A DNA stretch of 49,940 bases from Bacteroidales bacterium (GTDB taxonomy: Bacteria; Bacteroidota; Bacteroidia; Bacteroidales; P3): contig JAKSML010000010.1 in NCBI GenBank assembly GCA_024400665.1, positions 1 to 49,940 of the forward strand. Direction: 5' to 3'. The notes below the pieces were generated by a model. That model saw only the letters and a program-made list of their open reading frames with translations, ran no database searches and was not told where the DNA came from. The translations under genes and the position numbers were made by a program. Numbering within the stretch: position 1 is the stretch's first letter; each line of letters begins with the position of its first letter. Below, in pieces: positions 38,986-49,940 of this stretch.

Positions 38986-39147
38986 CTATTTTTGATTCTT
39001 ATCAATGTCATCCCAGTCTTTATGGCTGTTCTTTGCTTTGTCCACTATATAAACTACCAGGGAGAACAGTAGAGCTCCAATACAGCCCACAAAGAAAGCT
39101 TCTCCAGGGCTCGAATATTGTGATAGAAGAATGAATATTATTTCCAT
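38986..39147 (-). CDS. Small membrane protein (53 residues)
   Basis: ATG at 39147 (minus), stop TAG at 38986-38988, 53 residues beginning MEIIFILLSQYSSPGEAFF. One membrane helix, GCIGALLFSLVVYIVDKA, is followed by an acidic-basic tail (HKDWDDIDKNQK). Last gene of the seven-gene minus-strand operon, 12 bases after the previous stop. No family recognised. AT-rich like its partners. Confidence 0.6.
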   Translation of the reverse strand: MEIIFILLSQYSSPGEAFFVGCIGALLFSLVVYIVDKAKNSHKDWDDIDKNQK

Positions 39148-39159
39148 ATTGTCTGAATG

Positions 39160-39369
39160 TTAGTTCTTGTCTTCCCAATTTTTTTTGTTTATTTCATCCT
39201 CTTCTTTCTTTTTACCTCTTGAAATCAAGAAAGCCCCGAGTACTCCAGTCACAATAGCAGAGGCAAACTTTGTTCCTGCGGCATCATCGGCTCCAGCACT
39301 TAATGCCATAATTGATACAAACAAATTCAGTATGCCGAGTACTAATAAAATCCATCCTACTGTTTTCAT
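39160..39369 (-). CDS. Small two-helix membrane protein
   Basis: 69 residues: helix one is VGWILLVLGILNLFVSIMAL, a short glycine/alanine loop follows, helix two is FASAIVTGVLGAFLISRG, then a highly charged tail (KKKEEDEINKKNWEDKN). The start overlaps the preceding gene's stop by four bases (ATGA), so translation is likely coupled. The family is unknown; small two-helix proteins with charged tails are common in toxin, immunity and stress contexts, which is only suggestive. Confidence 0.7.
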   Translation of the reverse strand: MKTVGWILLVLGILNLFVSIMALSAGADDAAGTKFASAIVTGVLGAFLISRGKKKEEDEINKKNWEDKN

Positions 39370-39563
39370 TGATTATCCTCCTTCGTCTCGTTAATAAACT
39401 CAATGTCTTTTTTGCGGCTGCATAAAACGATAATCATTCCGATGATTCCTAACAAGAAAACTAGGACGAACCCCCATGTTTTCCCGATTTCTCGTTTCTC
39501 ACCGATTTTACAGAACAGAAAGGATATCAATGTTCTGCCTAAAATAAAACCAAATACTTCCAT
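39366..39563 (-). CDS. Small membrane protein, superinfection-immunity-like
   Basis: 65 residues: MEVFGFILGRTLISFLF, a short basic loop (GEKREIGKTWG), then FVLVFLLGIIGMIIVLCSRKKD and an acidic tail. The GKxWGFxLxFxLGIIGxIIVLxSRKK layout resembles small membrane proteins of the kind annotated as superinfection-immunity or DUF-type. That is a resemblance, not an assignment. It lies 12 bases after the J-domain gene and overlaps the next by ATGA. Confidence 0.65.
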   Translation of the reverse strand: MEVFGFILGRTLISFLFCKIGEKREIGKTWGFVLVFLLGIIGMIIVLCSRKKDIEFINETKEDNQ

Positions 39564-39575
39564 AAATAAGTGTTT

Positions 39576-39983
39576 TTATATGTTAATGTTTAATTTTTCG
39601 ATAGCCTTTTCTTTAAGCAATACTAATTCTTTATAACTATTTTGATGTTCTGTGATTTGTGTAGATATTTCATTTGCTATTTCCATCTTGTGTACGTCAG
39701 GAGCAAATCTATCTGGGTGACACTTTGTGATAAGAGTTTTGTAAAGTTCTTGAGCATGAAAAGAGCTGGTGATGGCGTTCTTGAAATCGATTTCACCTTC
39801 ATTTAATACTCTTTGTTTTGCTAATTTTTTGGCATCATTTTCTTTACCTCGTTTTTGGTTGATGAGGAGAAAAATGATAAGGAAAAATTCAATAAAAGCG
39901 ATAATCATCCACCAGTTCGTATCCATTTGTGTGTTTCCGATTTGTGACATGATAGTGTCTGTGACTGCGTTTGCTGTATCCAT
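39576..39983 (-). CDS. Membrane-anchored J-domain protein
   Basis: 135 residues. Residues 24-42 form one membrane helix (WWMIIAFIEFFLIIFLLIN), followed by a basic segment. The C-terminal ~60 residues look like a J domain: AQELYKTLITKCHPDRFAPD with the invariant HPD at residues 89-91, then a helix with EIANEISTQITEHQNSYKEL. J domains stimulate DnaK ATPase activity; here the anchor would place DnaK (whose gene lies 4 kb away) at the membrane. Fourth from the end of the operon, between a gene of unknown function and the small membrane proteins. The domain is short, so it could be a degenerate J fold, but HPD is intact. Confidence 0.75.
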   Translation of the reverse strand: MDTANAVTDTIMSQIGNTQMDTNWWMIIAFIEFFLIIFLLINQKRGKENDAKKLAKQRVLNEGEIDFKNAITSSFHAQELYKTLITKCHPDRFAPDVHKMEIANEISTQITEHQNSYKELVLLKEKAIEKLNINI

Positions 39984-39998
39984 ATTTGTATTGTGTTA

Positions 39999-40385
39999 TT
40001 ATTGTAACATGATGTAATCTTTTAGCTGCCAGCGGCATCCATAATTTCCGCTATCGCTATGAATCTCTAATGTGTCCCATCCAAGGACGACCATTCTTCG
40101 TACCAATTTGTCATCCGCTAAGATGGCATTTCCAAGAGCAATAGTCTCTTCTCGTGTCAATTGCCTTCCTGCATAGGCTTTGATGCGAAATCCACTATAT
40201 AGATAATTCGAAAATTGATGACGATATTCTCTGCATCCTTTGGAAATGCAGGCTTCGAGTAGGACTGGAGCTATTCCATCGACAAAAGATTCTCGTGCAT
40301 CACGATTAAATCCAATGATAAGTTGTGTTCTTGATTGCCGATCATGAAACCATTCAACAATTTTTTGTATGAAATTTTGAAACAT
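39999..40385 (-). CDS. Conserved-looking protein of unknown function
   Basis: 128 residues, soluble, mixed helix and strand: MFQNFIQKIVEWFHDRQSRTQ, GFNRDARESFVDGIAPVLLE, RQLTREETIALGNAILADD, and an aromatic C-terminus (GWDTLEIHSDSGNYGCRWQL). The regular spacing (21 and 15 bases to its neighbours) supports membership of the operon. I do not recognise a family. The first segment could bind membranes as an amphipathic helix. Confidence 0.65.
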   Translation of the reverse strand: MFQNFIQKIVEWFHDRQSRTQLIIGFNRDARESFVDGIAPVLLEACISKGCREYRHQFSNYLYSGFRIKAYAGRQLTREETIALGNAILADDKLVRRMVVLGWDTLEIHSDSGNYGCRWQLKDYIMLQ

Positions 40386-40406
40386 TTAGCATTGCTTATA
40401 AAGAGA

Positions 40407-40805
40407 TTATTCTATTATTTTTCTCACAGGCGAGGGAATCTGCTTGTCTATTTTGTAAAAAAATGTACCCCCATCAAGAATGTTCGATATGTTCTCTTGT
40501 AGCTGATTGTTGTTTGTTTTTGACGTCTTGTAGGAGAGTCGTGCGATAGTAACGGTCATAACTTCTGTCATTTGTATGAATTGTCGTTTTCCATTAATGT
40601 TGACAGAGACTTTATAGTATGGCGGCCAGCCGTTCTTTTCAATAATATCAACCACCCCGACTTTACAAAGCCATGCGGCAGCATATAGCCATGTGGGGTC
40701 TGGGTCGTGTTCGTATTCGTCTAGAAAAGTATTTACATTTTCAATCGCATTAGCTAGCCTGGTGAGTTCTTTTGTTTGATTAAGTATGTTTCCAAATATG
40801 CCCAT
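40407..40805 (-). CDS. Protein of unknown function
   Basis: 132 residues, soluble. An N-terminal helix (LNQTKELTRLANAIENVNTFLDE) leads into a segment with DPDPTWLYAAAWLCKVGVVDIIEKNGWPPYYKVSV, then a beta part and a polar C-terminus. No family recognised. It follows the first operon gene by 18 bases and precedes the next by 21. AT-rich composition like its partners. Confidence 0.65.
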   Translation of the reverse strand: MGIFGNILNQTKELTRLANAIENVNTFLDEYEHDPDPTWLYAAAWLCKVGVVDIIEKNGWPPYYKVSVNINGKRQFIQMTEVMTVTIARLSYKTSKTNNNQLQENISNILDGGTFFYKIDKQIPSPVRKIIE

Positions 40806-40823
40806 AATGAAATATTTTTTTAG

Positions 40824-41231
40824 TTATTGTAATTTTGATGCCACAGAGTCCATGTATTGGCGTGTTTCTGTTTCAATTTTCGTTATCATTGCTTCTTGCG
40901 ACATGTTTTCAGGGAAATCCCATTCCAGTTTGTGCTTCCCTAAAAATATATTGTTCATCTTCATGGTCACATTTATGCTACCGAATGTGTGTTGAAAATG
41001 AAATGCTATCTGTCCTGATGTGTTTGACATGGCAATGCATATATAGGTGTCAGTCTCTTCTACAATTCGCATCCCAGAATCAGGATCAATAAAGTTGTTG
41101 ATCAGTTTGCTGTATTTGGTTCGAATGCCACCTTCATTTTTTACTTTGATGTTTTCATTTGTTGAATCTTTCACGAAGTGGATTATTGAGATAACCACAA
41201 TTAGGATAATAAAAATCAATATAGTACTCAT
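40824..41231 (-). CDS. Membrane-anchored protein of unknown function, first gene of the small-gene operon
   Basis: 135 residues from the ATG at 41231, chosen because it opens directly into a membrane helix (STILIFIILIVVISIIHFV); the longer frame to 41318 would run into the terminator-like leader hairpin. The exported or cytosolic domain (~residues 35-135) is beta-rich with TDTYICIAMSNTSGQIAFHFQ and ends in a helix (MSQEAMITKIETETRQYMDS). No family recognised. First of seven co-directional genes separated by at most 21 bases. Confidence 0.7.
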   Translation of the reverse strand: MSTILIFIILIVVISIIHFVKDSTNENIKVKNEGGIRTKYSKLINNFIDPDSGMRIVEETDTYICIAMSNTSGQIAFHFQHTFGSINVTMKMNNIFLGKHKLEWDFPENMSQEAMITKIETETRQYMDSVASKLQ

Positions 41232-41276
41232 TTTTTGTTGTCTTTGTTGTTGAAATATCTTGTCGAAAAATGGTAT

Positions 41277-41407
41277 AAAAAAACCGCGAACTCTTTGTTG
41301 GCGTTCGAGGTTCGGCAAAACCCATTATCACAAACAAGAAAGTCCACGGTGACCCGTGAACATTTCTCCTTTCTTTTGTGATAATGTAGAAATTTGCCGA
41401 TTTCGAA
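41277..41407 (-). promoter_or_regulatory. Candidate transcription attenuator in the operon leader
   Basis: On the minus strand GTTCGAAATCGGCAAA (from 41407) can pair with TTTGCCGAACCTCGAAC further on. This encloses a strong inner hairpin (ATTATCACAAAAGAAAG with its complement, 41324-41385). The downstream arm's CGAAC can instead pair with GTTCG just before seven T (41277-41283), making a terminator. The two folds exclude each other, as in attenuators. Confidence 0.5.
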
Positions 41408-41530
41408 CAATCCAAAGAAAGCAAAAATGCTTCTATTTAATGTGTGAAATTCTCTTTATCTATTTTATTTACTTGTATTATAATTGTTTAATTGGTTATT
41501 ATTATGTGTGAATTACTGCTATAGCATTTG

Positions 41531-41538
41531 CAAAGATA
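41531..41538 (-). promoter_or_regulatory. Promoter -7 element of the small-gene operon
   Basis: The minus strand reads TATCTTTG followed by C. A TTTG about 40 bases further upstream may be the -33 element. The leader to the first ATG would be near 290 bases. Confidence 0.65.
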
Positions 41539-42035
41539 CAAACTTTTTCTGATATGCTAGGATTTTTTTTGTTCCAAATCTCATATGATTCATTCGATTT
41601 GTGGATCTATCGATTGGAATATAGCGTGTTAGGAGTTGGATGGGAGAATAGAATGGGTGGGTAAAGATTCGATGGGGGCATTATTGGGATTGCTTTAATC
41701 CGATCCTATTTTAACATTTTGGGATGCGGCGAGGAAGGGTCGGGGAAGCTCCGCTGTAGCTTCGCTCAACCTTCGCTCTAGCTTCGCTTGGAAAGCGGAA
41801 AATGAGCGAAGTTGAGGTGCGGCTTCTATGTGGCTGTGGCGGAGCTGGTTGGGCGGTTTTTGGGGGAAACGGCATTTTGCTTGTTTTGAGACTTCGGATT
41901 TTAACATTTGGCCTTCGGAGTCCTAAAATATCTTAATGGCCGAGAGGCTTGGGGAGGATGTGGGGCAATAATGAGGAGGAATGTCGTTCGATTATTCGAT
42001 TGGATGCCGTAGTTCGATGATAAATAGGTTATTGT

Positions 42036-43942: not shown

Positions 43943-45874
<1,932 letters not shown>

Positions 45875-45877
<3 letters not shown>

Positions 45878-46074: not shown

Positions 46075-46141
46075 TCAGTTCTTGGGGATGAGGATGTAGG
46101 GGAGGCCGGGGAGGGCTTCGTCGGTGGGTTTGACGGGGAGG
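46075..46141 (-). pseudogene. Orphan copy of the 3' end of the 49.7 kb gene
   Basis: 67 bases match 48713-48779 with one difference and end at the same stop codon. They would encode LPVKPTDEALPGLPYILIPKN; the intact gene has KLTDE where both orphan copies have KPTDE. No upstream coding part is present. Confidence 0.85.
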
Positions 46142-46151
46142 CCTTCACGTT

Positions 46152-46174
46152 GGCTCGGATTTATAATCCGAGCC
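46152..46174. repeat. Palindrome GGCTCGGATT TAT AATCCGAGCC
   Basis: A 10-bp perfect stem with a 3-base loop. It belongs to the GGATT...AATCC palindrome type seen in the 133-bp repeats next to it. Confidence 0.8.
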
Positions 46175-46189
46175 TGTCTAATATAAGGA

Positions 46190-46322
46190 TTTTTAATCCG
46201 CAAACATATCATACATTATTTATAATGAATTATTTAATGCGGATTGCAAATCCTTATATTTATATGTGTCGGATTGCAAATCCGACACAACGCCCCGACC
46301 TCAGAACATCCCCAAGGACGGA
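46190..46322. repeat. 133-bp palindromic repeat, copy a
   Basis: Identical to 46995-47127 except for one base. It contains the perfect stem GTGTCGGATT/AATCCGACAC and a larger arm pair AATCCGC/GCGGATT, and ends CATCCCCAAGGACGGA. This is the REP-like GGATT..AATCC family common between Bacteroidetes genes. Confidence 0.92.
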
Positions 46323-46334
46323 AAGTGAATGGGT

Positions 46335-46937
46335 TTACGGATTAATAAAAAAACTTGATATAGAAACGTCCTTTAGCGTGTATCTTTGACTGAACGCATA
46401 ATCAATCTCGGTGGTTGGAGCCACATATCCAAACTTTTTTCTCCAATCTACTGTGATAGGGACTCCGCCAATGCCATGACCCTCAAACATGGTCTCCCCA
46501 CGCATAGAGTAAATCCCTAAAAATTCCCCAACAATGCCACATCCGTTTTCACAACCATCCGCCATAAAAAAAAACATATCTCCATCTTTTTGAACCGACA
46601 TCCCAAGTACAGGAATTGATTTGTATTTGATAAATTTACCATTCGTGGTATAGGCATATTTAGATGGGGATTTAATATAGTGCCAGTGTTTTAGTTTTCC
46701 ATTGCGGTAAACCTCAATTCGTTGATTCCTAACTACAGGGTAAGAGTAGACCTTCAATGTTTCATTCCACTTTAATGTATCTTTATAAACAATTGTCACC
46801 AAACGCATAAGGGTATTTTCATATTCTATAGTGGCGTATATAGTATCATACAAATTCCCACTCGAAAAACCAACTTGTGCCGAAACATTAATTGAGAAAA
46901 GAAAAAGACAAATTCCAGAAAAAACAAATTTCTTCAT
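46335..46937 (-). CDS. Secreted protein of unknown function (cassette cargo)
   Basis: 200 residues. The signal peptide is MKKFVFSGICLFLFSINVSAQ. The mature part is beta-rich (YDTIYATIEYENTLMRLVTIVY, RNQRIEVYRNGKLKHWHYI) with two cysteines in DGCENGCGIVGEF. The C-terminus repeats polar strands and ends SSFFINP. No family recognised. It sits between the two full copies of the 133-bp repeat and is AT-rich, unlike the GC-rich gene heading the array. Its spacing and repeats suggest a mobile cargo gene. Confidence 0.65.
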   Translation of the reverse strand: MKKFVFSGICLFLFSINVSAQVGFSSGNLYDTIYATIEYENTLMRLVTIVYKDTLKWNETLKVYSYPVVRNQRIEVYRNGKLKHWHYIKSPSKYAYTTNGKFIKYKSIPVLGMSVQKDGDMFFFMADGCENGCGIVGEFLGIYSMRGETMFEGHGIGGVPITVDWRKKFGYVAPTTEIDYAFSQRYTLKDVSISSFFINP

Positions 46938-46994
46938 ACCTCTATTAACTTACCAATTGGGGTCGCTATCATTGAAATGCCAGAAAGTTCTTGG

Positions 46995-47127
46995 TTTTTA
47001 ATCCGCAAACATATCATACATTATTTATAATGAATTATTTAATGCGGATTGCAAATCCTTATATTTATATGTGTCGGATTGCAAATCCGACACAACGCCC
47101 CGCCCTCAGAACATCCCCAAGGACGGA
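46995..47127. repeat. 133-bp palindromic repeat, copy b
   Basis: Second full copy of the element at 46190-46322 (one base difference), between two cargo genes. Confidence 0.92.
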
Positions 47128-47146
47128 TGTTTCATAATGCTATTTA

Positions 47147-47560
47147 TTATTTGTTAAAAGCCTTGTCAATATACATGGAGAGTTCTCGGTCAATCGTCCG
47201 AGGCCCATAGAAATAACCTTTGACTCCTTGTCTGTGCAACTCGTCCATTGTCAATAGATCGGAATTTGTCTCTGAGACGAGTTCCATGCGAAAATATCTG
47301 TTATACTCCATTCCTTTCTTTAATTCTGCCTCATCACTCCAAAACTTCTTGTCTATTTTGGCTTTACTGGAAGGAATGTCGGTTGCAATGACATTCATCT
47401 TGTAGCGGATGCGCATTTCAGGCTTGGTGCAATAGATGTAAACAACATCGCCAACTTCGAAATTTGCCGACTGTTTCCAATCCACTTCATTGTTGTATTT
47501 CGACAAGAACTTGGCAAGGTCAAACTTGCTACTGTTAGATGGTATTATCCAATTGTTCAT
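47147..47560 (-). CDS. EVE/PUA-like domain protein (cassette cargo)
   Basis: 137 residues, cytoplasmic. MNNWIIPSNSSKFDLAKFL, then DWKQSANFEVGDVVYIYCTKPEMRIRYKMNV, matches the general pattern of EVE-like PUA-fold domains. In these a Trp near the start and the VGDxVYIY strand line the base-binding pocket; many bind modified bases in RNA or DNA and occur with restriction or toxin genes. The match is by eye and could be another beta-barrel fold. It follows an orphan gene tail and a 115-bp promoter-bearing insert. Confidence 0.6.
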   Translation of the reverse strand: MNNWIIPSNSSKFDLAKFLSKYNNEVDWKQSANFEVGDVVYIYCTKPEMRIRYKMNVIATDIPSSKAKIDKKFWSDEAELKKGMEYNRYFRMELVSETNSDLLTMDELHRQGVKGYFYGPRTIDRELSMYIDKAFNK

Positions 47561-47612
47561 ATCATGCAGTTTTAGGTAGGCTCTAAAAATTAAGGTGGGT
47601 TCTATAAATTCA

Positions 47613-47727
47613 TTTTTTAGCCTCCTGAATGGGCAGAACCCGTTAACCCATCATTCAGCTGGAATGTTCACTGGACATTCTCGTATTCGTGCTGCAAAGT
47701 TACACTTTTTTTCTCATTTAGAACATA
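47613..47727. other. 115-bp promoter-bearing segment splitting the duplicated gene tail
   Basis: In the intact gene the tail AAGAAC is followed by TGAATTTATAGAACCCACC. In this copy the tail ends CCCCAAGAA, then about 115 bases of new sequence intervene before TGAATTTATAGAACCCACC resumes. The insert carries TAACTTTG on the minus strand, a promoter -7 match aimed at the EVE-like gene, plus small inverted repeats (GAATGT...ACATTC, GAATGGG...CCCAT). Confidence 0.6.
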
Positions 47728-47786
47728 TTCTTGGGGATGAGGATGTAGGGGAGGCCGGGGAGGGCTTCGTCGGTGGGTTTGACGGG
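47728..47786 (-). pseudogene. Orphan copy of the 3' end of the 49.7 kb gene (second)
   Basis: 59 bases match the end of the intact gene and carry the KPTDE variant. The copy is joined directly at 47787 to a partial 133-bp repeat. Confidence 0.85.
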
Positions 47787-47835
47787 TTGCAAATCCGACA
47801 CAACGCCCCGCCCTCAGAACATCCCCAAGGACGGA
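47787..47835. repeat. Partial 133-bp repeat, copy c (49 bp)
   Basis: Matches the last 49 bases of the 133-bp element and is fused to the orphan tail at 47786/47787. The palindrome is broken in the middle. Confidence 0.85.
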
Positions 47836-47846
47836 ATTTCCGTCCG

Positions 47847-48287
47847 TTACTCGTTCATTATATCGAAATATCCAGAGGCTCCATCGCGAGTTACAACCTT
47901 GTAAAAATGTTCTCCCTCGGTCGTAATAAAATTCTCGTCAGGATGAATCCAAAGCGTCCGCTGCCCTGATGGTGCATAATTATCCCATGGATGTATAACC
48001 CAGATGCGTTTCCATATTCCTAATGGCGACTTTTCATAAAGGCTGACACAGCAATGTCCATCCAAAACATGAATGTTGTCCAGTTGAAAGAATTTCGCCG
48101 CAGTCAAGAAGTATGTGCCATCGTTGTGAGATGTCACGTCATTAGTTGTGATATAGACGGAGTCGTTTTCATAAACAAAAAGGAAGAGCGTATCATTGGT
48201 TGTATTGCGGTTTCCCAGAAAACTCTGTGCCGAAGCGGTGGCGACAACGGCGAGGAGGACCGTACATATAAACACTTTTTTCTTCAT
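47847..48287 (-). CDS. Secreted protein of unknown function (cassette cargo)
   Basis: 146 residues. The signal peptide is MKKKVFICTVLLAVVATASAQ. The mature ~125 residues are beta-rich with NDTLFLFVYENDSVYITTND, HVLDGHCCVSLYEKSPLG and RTLWIHPDENFITTEGEHFYK. No family recognised. It follows the CPCC gene by ~100 bases containing a hairpin and ends just before the fused repeat and orphan tail. Confidence 0.65.
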   Translation of the reverse strand: MKKKVFICTVLLAVVATASAQSFLGNRNTTNDTLFLFVYENDSVYITTNDVTSHNDGTYFLTAAKFFQLDNIHVLDGHCCVSLYEKSPLGIWKRIWVIHPWDNYAPSGQRTLWIHPDENFITTEGEHFYKVVTRDGASGYFDIMNE

Positions 48288-48313
48288 ATTCTAAATTATT
48301 AAAAGTTAATCAC

Positions 48314-48355
48314 TGAAACAAACGCCGTCCTTGCGGACGGCAGCCGTTTGTTTCA
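48314..48355. terminator. Hairpin between cargo genes
   Basis: TGAAACAAACG pairs exactly with CGTTTGTTTCA, enclosing CCGTCC/GGACGG. It lies 30 bases after the CPCC gene stop, so it probably ends that transcript (minus strand). Confidence 0.65.
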
Positions 48356-48385
48356 TCGCGGCCTCAAAATGGACTGTTTCTCCAT

Positions 48386-48688
48386 CTATCTGTTTACAAC
48401 ATATCGTGATTTGGCCTTTGATAATTTTGCATCGGAAAGTTGTTTCTCCATCAACTGCCTGTCCCAGTTATTTGGTTCTTCATCTTTATCCCTCCAGTGG
48501 AAACCACTGGCAATCCATTTTTCCCGATAGTTTGCATATGAAAGTCCTGCAGATTCGTCGTGATATCCAAATTCATACCCACAACAAGGGCAGATTTCAT
48601 ATGTGGGATATCCATATTTAGTAAATGGACCTTCTTCTAAGTTGGGGAAACCGCAGACGGGACATATCTTTGAACTATCCATAATCAT
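48386..48688 (-). CDS. CPCC-type cysteine-rich protein
   Basis: 100 residues starting MIMDSSKICPVCGFPNLEEGP. Two CxxC pairs (CPVC and CPCC in YEICPCCGYEFGYHDES) form a zinc-ribbon-like module, followed by helices with W and E/K-rich end (ANYREKWIASGFHWRDKDEEP). This is the CPCC cysteine-rich family, small cytoplasmic proteins often found beside immunity genes in toxin loci; no activity is known to me. It starts 25 bases after the stop of the GC-rich gene, the first cargo of the array. Confidence 0.75.
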   Translation of the reverse strand: MIMDSSKICPVCGFPNLEEGPFTKYGYPTYEICPCCGYEFGYHDESAGLSYANYREKWIASGFHWRDKDEEPNNWDRQLMEKQLSDAKLSKAKSRYVVNR

Positions 48689-48712
48689 CAGTTTAAGGTG
48701 GGTTCTATAAAT

Positions 48713-49705
48713 TCAGTTCTTGGGGATGAGGATGTAGGGGAGGCCGGGGAGGGCTTCGTCGGTGAGTTTGACGGGGAGGTCGCTGCCGGCTGGGGCGACG
48801 TAGAGGCCGCCGGCCTTGAGGGCGCGTTCGTCGGCGGAGGTGATGCGGCCGTCCGTGGCGGCGAGGTCCTTGGGGTTGGCGGCGGCGAGCTTCTCCCAGG
48901 TCCAGTGGGCGCTGACGGCGTAGAGGCGGTTGCCCACGATGTCGCTCTTGACGCTGACGCGGCGGTTGTTGCGGCGGCGGTCTTCGGAGAGCTGGCGGCT
49001 GTACTCCTGCTCTTCGGTGATGCCGACGATGAGTTTCTCGAAGCGGCGCGGGTCGTCATCGACCACGGCGAGCGAGTTGAGCATCAGCACCATGTCGCGG
49101 TAGGCGGCATCGGTCTTGAGGCGTGTGGCCTTGAGGTCGATGTCGGCCGCGGAGCCGCGTTCGTCGTTGCGTGTGGAGATGAGGTCGCGGAGCTTGTTGG
49201 TGGTCTCCATCATCTGGTCGATGGCTTCGCTGATGGACAGCTCGCGGGCGGCGGCCACCTGCGCGGGGTCGGCGCTGTAGATGCCGTGCCACTGGAAGAG
49301 GGCGGTGTTCTCCACGTCGTAGGCCATGGCGGTGTCGAGCTTGTACAGCTCGATGGAGGGCTGCAGGGCGAGGGCGGCCTGCTGCTTGGCGGGGAAGACG
49401 GCGAGCTTGGCCGAGGCGCTGACGGTCGTCTTCACGAAGCGCAGCAGGTCGTCGCGCTCCTGGTCCAGCTCGGCGATGCGAGCGGTGAGGGCGTTCTTCT
49501 GCGAGACGAGGTAGGCGCGGTCCTCCTCCTCGCGTGCGATGTAGAAGGCGTCGGCCCAGGGCTTCAGCTTGACGGGGATGGGGGTGCCGTTGTCGAAAAA
49601 CGCCTTGACGCGCTTCTCGGCCTCAGTCATGAAACCGATGTGAATGTCGTTCTGCCATAGTAGGAAACCGACATAGGGGACTTGTTTAACATCTGATAGT
49701 GTCAT
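48713..49705 (-). CDS. Large helical protein of unknown function, parent of the orphan tails
   Basis: 330 residues with no signal peptide or membrane helix, largely helical: KNALTARIAELDQERDDLLRFVKTTVSA, MMETTNKLRDLISTRNDERG, RNNRRVSVKSDIVGNRLYAV. The compact end is EALPGLPYILIPKN. The helical pattern with RDxLLxFVK and WTWEKL might be related to DUF6261 of Bacteroidetes, but I cannot confirm it. Very GC-rich (Ala, Arg) compared with its cargo neighbours. Its last ~60 bases are copied twice downstream, at 46075 and 47728. Confidence 0.7.
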   Translation of the reverse strand: MTLSDVKQVPYVGFLLWQNDIHIGFMTEAEKRVKAFFDNGTPIPVKLKPWADAFYIAREEEDRAYLVSQKNALTARIAELDQERDDLLRFVKTTVSASAKLAVFPAKQQAALALQPSIELYKLDTAMAYDVENTALFQWHGIYSADPAQVAAARELSISEAIDQMMETTNKLRDLISTRNDERGSAADIDLKATRLKTDAAYRDMVLMLNSLAVVDDDPRRFEKLIVGITEEQEYSRQLSEDRRRNNRRVSVKSDIVGNRLYAVSAHWTWEKLAAANPKDLAATDGRITSADERALKAGGLYVAPAGSDLPVKLTDEALPGLPYILIPKN

Positions 49706-49816
49706 AATGATAAAATTTTATTGAATATATCCGATAACGCAGCTTTCGCCTCGTTATTGTGTGCTTTTGTGAAATTTTGGCCAGACACTGCTGCCAAAAC
49801 GCCTTAGAAAAGCCTC

Positions 49817-49940
49817 GAAAAGGCCTTAGCGAGCCTCAAAAAAATTCTGGCAGCCTCGGCAAGGCCTTAGCGAGCCTCAAAAAAATTCTGGCAGCCTCGA
49901 AAAGGCCTTAGCGAGCCTCAAAAAAATTCTGGCAGCCTCG
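49817..49940. repeat. Tandem repeat, 41-bp unit, three copies
   Basis: Copies at 49817-49857, 49858-49898 and 49899-49939 each read GGCCTTAGCGAGCCTC then a run of A and TTCTGGCAGCCTC. The array reaches the window edge. The core TGGCAGCCTC also occurs in the 42-bp repeats at 23008. No gene is seen in 49706-49940. Confidence 0.92.

What the first reader, a model, noticed from the sequence alone, without database searches (positions are those of the whole stretch)
46075..49705. Cassette-like array: orphan gene tails, palindromic repeats and small cargo genes
The GC-rich gene at 49.7 kb is followed by four small AT-rich genes. Between them are two exact-ended copies of that gene's last ~60 bases and three copies (two full, one partial) of a 133-bp palindromic element. 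Copy-ended tails plus cargo genes resemble the arrays of displaced toxin tails and immunity genes, or an unusual cassette-collecting site. The presence of an EVE-like, a CPCC and two secreted proteins fits accessory or immunity cargo. No integrase or transposase lies in the window.
Basis: partly seen in the sequence, partly recalled or inferred. Interest (0 to 1): 0.72.

Follow-up and report, generated by a model that had tools for sequence, protein, structure and literature searches.

The report
Stacked gene cassettes behind displaced gene-tails
Beside a gene of unknown function in a gut bacterium, small foreign-looking genes are stacked between leftover copies of that gene's end; related bacteria show the same pattern behind the conserved chaperone gene dnaK, which points to a way of adding genes without breaking the host gene.

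Summary
A DUF6261 gene (48713-49705, minus strand) is followed by four AT-rich ORFs, two displaced copies of its last 59-67 nt (plus an 8-nt remnant) and three copies of a palindrome whose full unit is 180 bp. The palindrome is a dispersed repeat, mostly found just behind stop codons; the 19-bp motif beside two tails is the right end of an IS5-family insertion sequence. Displaced tails are not peculiar to this gene. Relatives (the genus of Ca. Colimorpha pelethequi) show them at dnaK, the neighbour here: 13 displaced dnaK tails in 11 of 76 loci examined, all downstream on the same strand. In 8 of 15 copies the following flank matches the in-frame dnaK flank of another species, and one toxin-antitoxin cassette sits at different stack depths. 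One window cargo gene lies on a 450-bp piece 99.8% identical to Ca. C. pelethequi DNA (dnaK 86%). Best reading: recombination-driven tail displacement as in Rhs or T6SS arrays, but loading independent cargo behind ordinary genes. For DUF6261 this rests on one draft genome; local duplication of a palindrome-tail unit remains possible.

The parts
48713..49705 (-). Host gene of the stack: 330-aa DUF6261-family protein; the last 67 nt are the in-frame tail
   Evidence: Pfam PF19775, E 5.5e-21; GC 0.653
48713..48779 (-). In-frame tail (last 67 nt of the gene, stop codon included)
   Evidence: member of repeat D3
48697..48715 (-). 19-bp IS right-end inverted repeat overlapping the DUF6261 stop codon
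   Evidence: 15 exact copies in own genome; same motif at the right end of full IS copies in L112 and, with changes, L116
48386..48688 (-). Cargo ORF, 100 aa, cysteine-rich (weak zinc-ribbon/CPCC resemblance)
   Evidence: weak match to the PADLOC PtuA1 model, E 1.4e-4
47847..48287 (-). Cargo ORF, 146 aa, signal-like N-terminus (by eye)
47780..47836 (-). Truncated palindromic element (57 of 180 nt)
   Evidence: repeat D4
47728..47786 (-). Displaced tail copy 2 (59 nt)
   Evidence: repeat D3
47594..47727 (-). 134-nt IS right end: promoter-like TAACTTTG (by eye), leader, 19-bp inverted repeat
   Evidence: 98% identical copy at C12:2258-2391
47126..47575 (-). Recently transferred 450-bp piece holding the 137-aa cargo ORF (47147-47560)
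   Evidence: 99.8% identity over 450 bp to G059:C25 while dnaK is 86.3% identical
46995..47127 (-). Truncated palindromic element (133 of 180 nt)
   Evidence: repeat D2
46987..46994 (-). 8-nt remnant of the tail
   Evidence: read from the sequence
46335..46937 (-). Cargo ORF, 200 aa, signal-like N-terminus (by eye)
46144..46323 (-). Complete 180-nt palindromic element
   Evidence: one of eight near-full-length copies at 97-100% identity in own genome
46075..46141 (-). Displaced tail copy 1 (66/67 nt), ending at the dnaK-side flank
   Evidence: repeat D3
43943..45877 (+). dnaK, convergent neighbour; its 3' end is the tail-displacement hotspot in relatives

Best explanation
The stretch 46075-48712 is a stack of three accessory-gene cassettes that accumulated behind the DUF6261 gene by tail displacement. 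Foreign DNA that carries a copy of the gene's last codons recombines into the gene's 3' end; the gene keeps an intact end, the cargo lies behind it, and a 3' fragment of the earlier copy remains further downstream as an orphan tail. Shown: the tails, the cargo, their order and composition; the same pattern at dnaK in relatives, with displaced flanks matching in-frame flanks of other species and the same cassette at different stack positions; the recent horizontal transfer of the 137-aa gene's DNA. Inferred: that the events are homology-anchored (RecA-type) recombination between tails, with an occasional illegitimate join that founds a new cassette, rather than a site-specific recombinase; that DUF6261 behaves like dnaK; that the IS right end supplies a promoter and the palindrome a terminator-like 3' end for the cargo.
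For: Tail copies separate the cargo blocks, all on the gene's strand and downstream. Parallel at dnaK: 13 displaced dnaK tails in 11 of 76 loci with an in-frame tail, all downstream and on the same strand, 0 on the other strand, 0 hits for three scrambled control motifs in 1.21 Mb (three loci with a longer second fragment reclassified by me). Two more genomes, L193 and L194, came from whole-genome search. In 8 of the 15 copies the flank (154-201 nt) matches the in-frame dnaK flank of another species at 90-99.5%. One 650-nt toxin-antitoxin cassette is directly behind dnaK in L236 and 8.0 kb away in L211 at 96.6% identity, while the two dnaK bodies are 90.2% identical. The last 105 nt of L211's displaced tail equal L236's in-frame tail. 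Outside other ORFs, tails recur downstream 11 times and upstream 0 times for 639 genes. Cargo ORFs in dnaK stacks include Fic, RelE, YoeB, HipA, PIN and HepT families, no integrase among the 25 of 36 families shown. The 450-bp cargo piece is 99.8% identical to G059, i.e. Ca. C. pelethequi.
Against: The DUF6261 stack is known from one draft genome; none of 118 other genomes gave more than weak matches to its end (which scored at most 6 candidate places per genome), so no before-and-after pair exists. In the window every displaced tail is joined to the palindrome, which precedes only 1 of 15 displaced dnaK tails. Two of the three palindrome-tail joins are internally deleted, so their original junctions cannot be compared. 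The pattern is rare elsewhere: in a 437-kb sample of the own genome (290 genes, partly chosen for carrying repeats) only DUF6261 shows it outside ORFs, and 281 genes of 400 kb of G036 show none outside ORFs (6 and 1 tail matches lay inside other ORFs and were set aside as likely paralogues). 7 of 15 displaced dnaK flanks have only short or weak matches (5) or none (2). The two displaced tails behind the shared toxin-antitoxin cassette differ at 9 of 154 positions. The stretch is bounded by long repeats, so local misassembly is possible.
Confidence: 0.58

Rival explanations
1. Local duplication of one composite unit. The palindromic repeat joined the DUF6261 tail once, and this palindrome-tail unit was then copied into neighbouring 3' ends (by transposition of the repeat or by tandem rearrangement), so the tails are hitchhikers and the cargo was not brought in with them.
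For: All displaced tails in the window are attached to the palindrome. The palindrome is a dispersed element; in 11 of 15 copies inspected it begins 2-62 nt behind the stop of an ORF of at least 60 aa. The outer ends of the unit share an inverted match, TTGGGGATG / CATCCCCAA (I11). Palindromes precede only 1 of 15 displaced dnaK tails, so the window differs from dnaK in this.
Against: The tail was found nowhere else in the own genome although the palindrome has eight near-full-length copies. Displaced tails at dnaK show the same architecture without the palindrome. No Y1 transposase was found in the own genome (65% complete), and none of the 12 Y1 loci of relatives that were fetched (40 of 59 genomes have a Y1) has such palindromes.
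Confidence: 0.22
2. Tail-restoring integration by a site-specific recombinase supplied in trans (as with elements that integrate in gene 3' ends): the tail is an attachment core and each cassette a small non-autonomous island.
For: Direct tail repeats bounding AT-rich DNA; similar cassette-tail junctions recur in different species (...TTGCAA/AACGCTGG in L217, L237 and L254...ACTTAAGTT/CATGTACAA in L211 and L236).
Against: Tail lengths at dnaK, measured by alignment to the own in-frame tail, range from 39 nt to at least 385 nt (one reaches the 450-nt limit) instead of being fixed; no integrase among the 25 of 36 families shown for 47 ORFs of the dnaK stacks. The own genome was not searched for integrases.
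Confidence: 0.09
3. Assembly artefact: the contig was joined wrongly across the 133-180 bp palindromes and the 134-bp IS end, or mixes strains.
For: The genome is a 65%-complete draft of 46 contigs, several of which end within this IS; the cargo blocks in the window are bounded by near-identical repeats.
Against: The internally deleted palindrome-tail junctions are unique sequences; the same displaced-tail junctions at dnaK recur in genomes from different projects (record titles).
Confidence: 0.08

Closest known systems
Rhs C-terminal displacement arrays (Jackson et al. 2009, PMC2935791; abstract and section 'Displacement of C-terminal tips' read)
   Same: High-GC core gene; AT-rich downstream region with successive 3' fragments of that gene as direct repeats of varying length; incoming ends displace resident ones; homologous recombination proposed.
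   Different: There the tips are variable C-termini that become the new end of the protein. Here the tail is similar and simply restores the gene; the payload is separate genes; the host genes are DUF6261 and dnaK.
Sequential displacement of T6SS effector genes with orphan immunity arrays in Vibrio cholerae (PMC5361080; passages read)
   Same: Successive insertions push older genes downstream; homology-facilitated illegitimate recombination proposed as mechanism.
   Different: Effector-immunity modules at secretion clusters; the ancestral effector is replaced and its immunity gene kept, rather than short tails of an intact host gene being left as scars.
Accessory-gene hotspots between core genes (PMC5635113; search listing and start of abstract only)
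   Same: Transferred genes concentrate in few chromosomal places with rapid turnover.
   Different: Displaced gene tails as boundaries are the distinguishing trait here; whether that paper discusses such tails was not read.
IS5-family insertion sequence
   Same: The 19-bp motif is its right end: transposase NF033581 (IS5), E 1.4e-80; in L112 left end GGGGAGTTCTATAAAT, right end GGTGGGTTCTATAAAT.
   Different: In the 46-49.9 kb stretch only right-end remnants were seen, without transposase.

Membership tests
Rhs / polymorphic-toxin displaced-tip array | Direct repeats of the host gene's 3' portion downstream of it, separated by other genes | tested here: met
   DUF6261; dnaK
Rhs / polymorphic-toxin displaced-tip array | Host gene is a polymorphic toxin with a variable C-terminal tip | tested here: not met
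   DUF6261 and dnaK; displaced tails are 87-100% identical to the in-frame tail in 12 of 15 copies, 74-76% in three
Rhs / polymorphic-toxin displaced-tip array | Cargo genes are cognate immunity genes | not testable with these tools
   cargo of the window unassigned; dnaK cargo includes toxin-antitoxin and nuclease-like families
Integron gene-cassette array | Integron integrase | not tested
   own genome not searched for it; none among the families shown for 47 ORFs of dnaK stacks
Integron gene-cassette array | attC-like site at each cassette end with conserved core boxes | tested here: not met
   the palindrome stands behind many unrelated single genes and before only 1 of 15 displaced dnaK tails; core boxes judged by eye from recalled consensus
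Tail-restoring integrative element (integrase attachment in a gene 3' end) | Fixed crossover core, hence constant tail length in one target gene | tested here: not met
   dnaK tails from 39 nt to at least 385 nt
Tail-restoring integrative element (integrase attachment in a gene 3' end) | Recombinase gene in some copies | tested here: inconclusive
   none among the 25 of 36 families shown for 47 of 67 ORFs
Displacement array by homology-facilitated illegitimate recombination | Successive insertions with older material displaced downstream | tested here: met
   at dnaK: displaced flanks match in-frame flanks of other species in 8 of 15 copies; same cassette at different depths. For DUF6261 itself not testable
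Displacement array by homology-facilitated illegitimate recombination | Homologous anchor at one end (RecA-dependent), illegitimate join at the other | not testable with these tools
   needs an experiment
REP element mobilised by a Y1 (RAYT) transposase | Y1 transposase accompanied by the same palindrome | tested here: not met
   no Y1 found in own genome (65% complete); 0 of the 12 Y1 loci fetched from relatives carry the palindrome core

The most novel reading that the evidence does not exclude
In this gut/rumen Bacteroidales genus the 3' end of the conserved chaperone gene dnaK, and occasionally of neighbouring genes such as DUF6261 or a Fic gene, acts as a recombinase-free docking port. 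Small cassettes carry a portable copy of the gene's tail, so any crossover in the tail loads cargo while regenerating the host gene, and a last-in-first-out stack of toxin-antitoxin and other accessory genes builds up with each old tail kept as a scar. Single genes can be captured this way between species, dressed with a transposon-end promoter and a palindromic 3' end.
Probability: 0.35. Interest if true: 0.75.

Novelty: new variant of a known kind. Interest (0 to 1): 0.6.

Why it matters
Tail displacement is described for Rhs and T6SS toxin loci. Seeing it at dnaK, with cargo unrelated to the host gene, suggests a general route by which accessory and toxin-antitoxin genes load beside conserved genes without an integrase. 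Orphan tails would be readable scars of past insertions and their order, and a simple scan for displaced 3' gene ends could find such ports in other genomes. No listing in the searches made (two of them empty, the others judged by title and start of abstract) described dnaK as such a site; the library is open-access only, so this is weak evidence of absence.

Tried and rejected
Considered and rejected. (1) The 19-bp motif as a cassette recombination site or a conserved leader RNA: it is the right inverted repeat of an IS5-family element, and no Rfam match reached its gathering score. (2) The palindrome as a REP element with a Y1 transposase: no support. (3) Tail displacement as a genome-wide habit: not seen outside ORFs beyond DUF6261 in 437 kb of the own genome, nor in 400 kb of G036. 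(4) EVE domain and defence function of the 137-aa ORF: no match. (5) A DUF6261 relative with the same tail: protein relatives in the genus are at most 31% identical (20 of 59 genomes with a match, own genome included; a second DUF6261 gene lies at C1:26265-26942), no genome contigs relative, only weak DNA matches. (6) Close relatives of the 100- and 146-aa cargo genes: best are 73-75% DNA matches to the 100-aa gene in four genomes of another genus of the family; the other matches are short. (7) Literature on a dnaK port or tail-bounded accessory hotspots: nothing in the listings.

Rows dropped: L256 was not counted as displaced because its only tail lies at the contig start, and L280 and L287 held no tail, leaving 76 of 79 loci; L212, L241 and L272 had a second long fragment listed as 'main' and were reclassified as displaced. 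Some genomes are represented by two loci among the 79 (for example L233 and L253). In one search only 47 of the 67 ORFs listed were scanned; 11 of its 36 families were not shown. In one search, copies with one mismatch and copies not shown to belong to the IS are included in the 23.
Full report
What is there. On the minus strand the order is: DUF6261 gene (49705-48713), a 19-bp IS end overlapping its stop codon, a 100-aa cysteine-rich ORF, a 146-aa ORF, a truncated palindrome, a displaced 59-nt tail, a 134-nt IS right end, a 137-aa ORF, a second truncated palindrome with an 8-nt tail remnant, a 200-aa ORF, a complete 180-nt palindrome, a displaced 67-nt tail, and then the intergenic region before the convergent dnaK. 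So there are three blocks of the form cargo-palindrome-tail behind an intact gene. The cargo stretch has GC 0.40 against 0.65 and 0.61 for the two bounding genes.

What the repeats are. The tail was found only here in the genome. The palindrome is dispersed: eight near-full-length copies at 97-100% identity, the 133-nt copy of the window, and many divergent or partial ones. In 11 of 15 copies inspected it begins 2-62 nt behind the stop of an ORF of at least 60 aa. The 19-bp motif GGTGGGTTCTATAAATTCA occurs 15 times exactly, several times at contig ends, and is the right end of a roughly 1.3-kb IS whose left end is GGGGAGTTCTATAAATTA; the 350-354 aa transposases found in relatives are IS5 family. 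The IS right end carries a promoter-like TAACTTTG (by eye). Of 23 copies of the inverted-repeat core inspected in fetched parts of the own genome, 12 are followed within 150 nt by the start of an ORF of at least 60 aa, and 6 of these also have the palindrome behind that ORF or block. That the IS end drives cargo is inference.

Recent capture. The 137-aa gene lies on a 450-bp piece that is 99.8% identical to DNA of G059. The dnaK genes of the two are 86.3% identical over 1881 nt. In G059 the gene is followed by a DUF4468-family gene; in the window the match stops nine or ten bases into that next gene, where the palindrome begins. In G067 a homologue (82% identity) lies about 1.8 kb behind dnaK, that is, in the same hotspot.

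The parallel at dnaK. A search with the last part of dnaK returned extra copies of its tail in other genomes of the genus. Among 79 public loci found with a DnaK C-terminus, 76 show an in-frame tail and 11 of these carry 13 displaced tails, all downstream on the same strand; none lies on the other strand, and three scrambled motifs gave no hit in 1.21 Mb (with my reclassification). The 76 loci include more distant records: none of the 24 motif-bearing loci among L262-L270 and L273-L289 has a displaced tail. Two further genomes, G035 (L193) and G104 (L194), came from whole-genome search. Measured by alignment to the own in-frame tail, the 15 displaced tails run from 39 nt to at least 385 nt, one reaching the 450-nt limit.

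Displacement rather than mere duplication. In 8 of the 15 copies the 154-201 nt behind the displaced tail match, at 90-99.5%, the sequence that follows the in-frame dnaK of another species; for instance G104's displaced flank is 99.5% identical to G035's in-frame flank over 200 nt. Of the other seven, five have only short or weak matches and two none. The same 650-nt toxin-antitoxin cassette is first behind dnaK in L236, 8.0 kb away in L211 (96.6% identity; dnaK bodies 90.2%), and related copies (77-79%) lie about 4.2 kb away in L193 and L244. The last 105 nt of the displaced tail of L211 equal the in-frame tail of L236, as expected if crossovers fall within tails; the two displaced tails behind the shared cassette differ at 9 of 154 positions.

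Specificity. For 639 genes of at least 150 aa in the window and 61 loci (L211-L271), tails recur within 10 kb outside other ORFs 11 times downstream and never upstream; gene heads and middles recur 9 times in mixed directions (a further tail, two heads and three middles lay inside other ORFs). Besides dnaK and DUF6261, two other genes show it: a Fic gene (L271) and a 693-aa gene in L241, the latter partly within a repetitive coding stretch. In larger samples the pattern was rare: 290 genes in 437 kb of the own genome gave only DUF6261 outside ORFs, 281 genes in 400 kb of G036 none. It is thus a local habit, mainly of the dnaK 3' side, where the window's DUF6261 also lies.

Cargo. 47 of the 67 ORFs between dnaK (or, in L271, the Fic gene) and the displaced tails were scanned; families include Fic, RelE, YoeB, HipA, PIN, nucleotidyltransferase and HepT, YhcG and T5orf172; one transposase-associated domain appeared and no integrase among the 25 families shown of 36. 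The window's own cargo has no clear family.

Mechanism. The recurrence of the same cassette-tail junctions in different species argues that once formed, tail-bearing cassettes spread by homologous recombination in the tail; the variable tail lengths argue that new cassettes are founded by joins at arbitrary points, as in homology-facilitated illegitimate recombination, the model proposed for V. cholerae immunity arrays (passages of PMC5361080). Jackson et al. proposed recombination with circular intermediates for Rhs (abstract and one section of PMC2935791). Neither step was tested here.

Limits. The DUF6261 stack is seen in one draft genome of 65% completeness. All its displaced tails are tied to the palindrome, whereas only 1 of 15 displaced dnaK tails has such a palindrome within 120 nt before it, so local duplication of a palindrome-tail unit is a serious rival.

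Noticed in passing
own genome contigs C3, C12, C28, C31, C46 (right ends) and C4, C15, C44, C45 (left ends): Nine contigs end in one or other end of the same kind of IS5-family element; ORF starts often follow the right end closely, suggesting a mobile outward promoter.
   Followed up: partly
L059:1-5500 (contig C12): Second array of the form IS end-ORF-palindrome with a BspA-like LRR protein, a diacylglycerol kinase and two unassigned ORFs; here the palindrome is fused twice to the 3' end of the IS transposase gene (translation by eye).
   Followed up: partly
L142-L210, flanks behind the dnaK stop codon: The sequence directly behind the dnaK stop codon differs widely between species of the genus, often with its own terminator-like hairpin.
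   Followed up: partly
own-genome sample (L324-L343) versus G036 (L304-L323): The palindrome core GGATT-N2-6-AATCC occurs 31 times in 375 kb of the own genome (partly chosen for carrying it) but once in 400 kb of G036; five control palindromes give 0-2 in the own sample.
   Followed up: no
window 49811-49940: Three tandem copies of a 41-bp unit run to the contig end upstream of DUF6261.
   Followed up: no
window 39000-42000: AT-rich stretch (GC 0.35-0.39) with four minus-strand ORFs of 128-164 aa, a further possible accessory island.
   Followed up: no
L060:3019-3311 (contig C28): 293-bp element with inverted copies of the 19-bp IS end, probably a MITE.
   Followed up: no
L241 minus strand and L271:11690-12772: Displaced 3' tails of two further genes (a 693-aa protein and a Fic protein) near dnaK.
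   Followed up: partly
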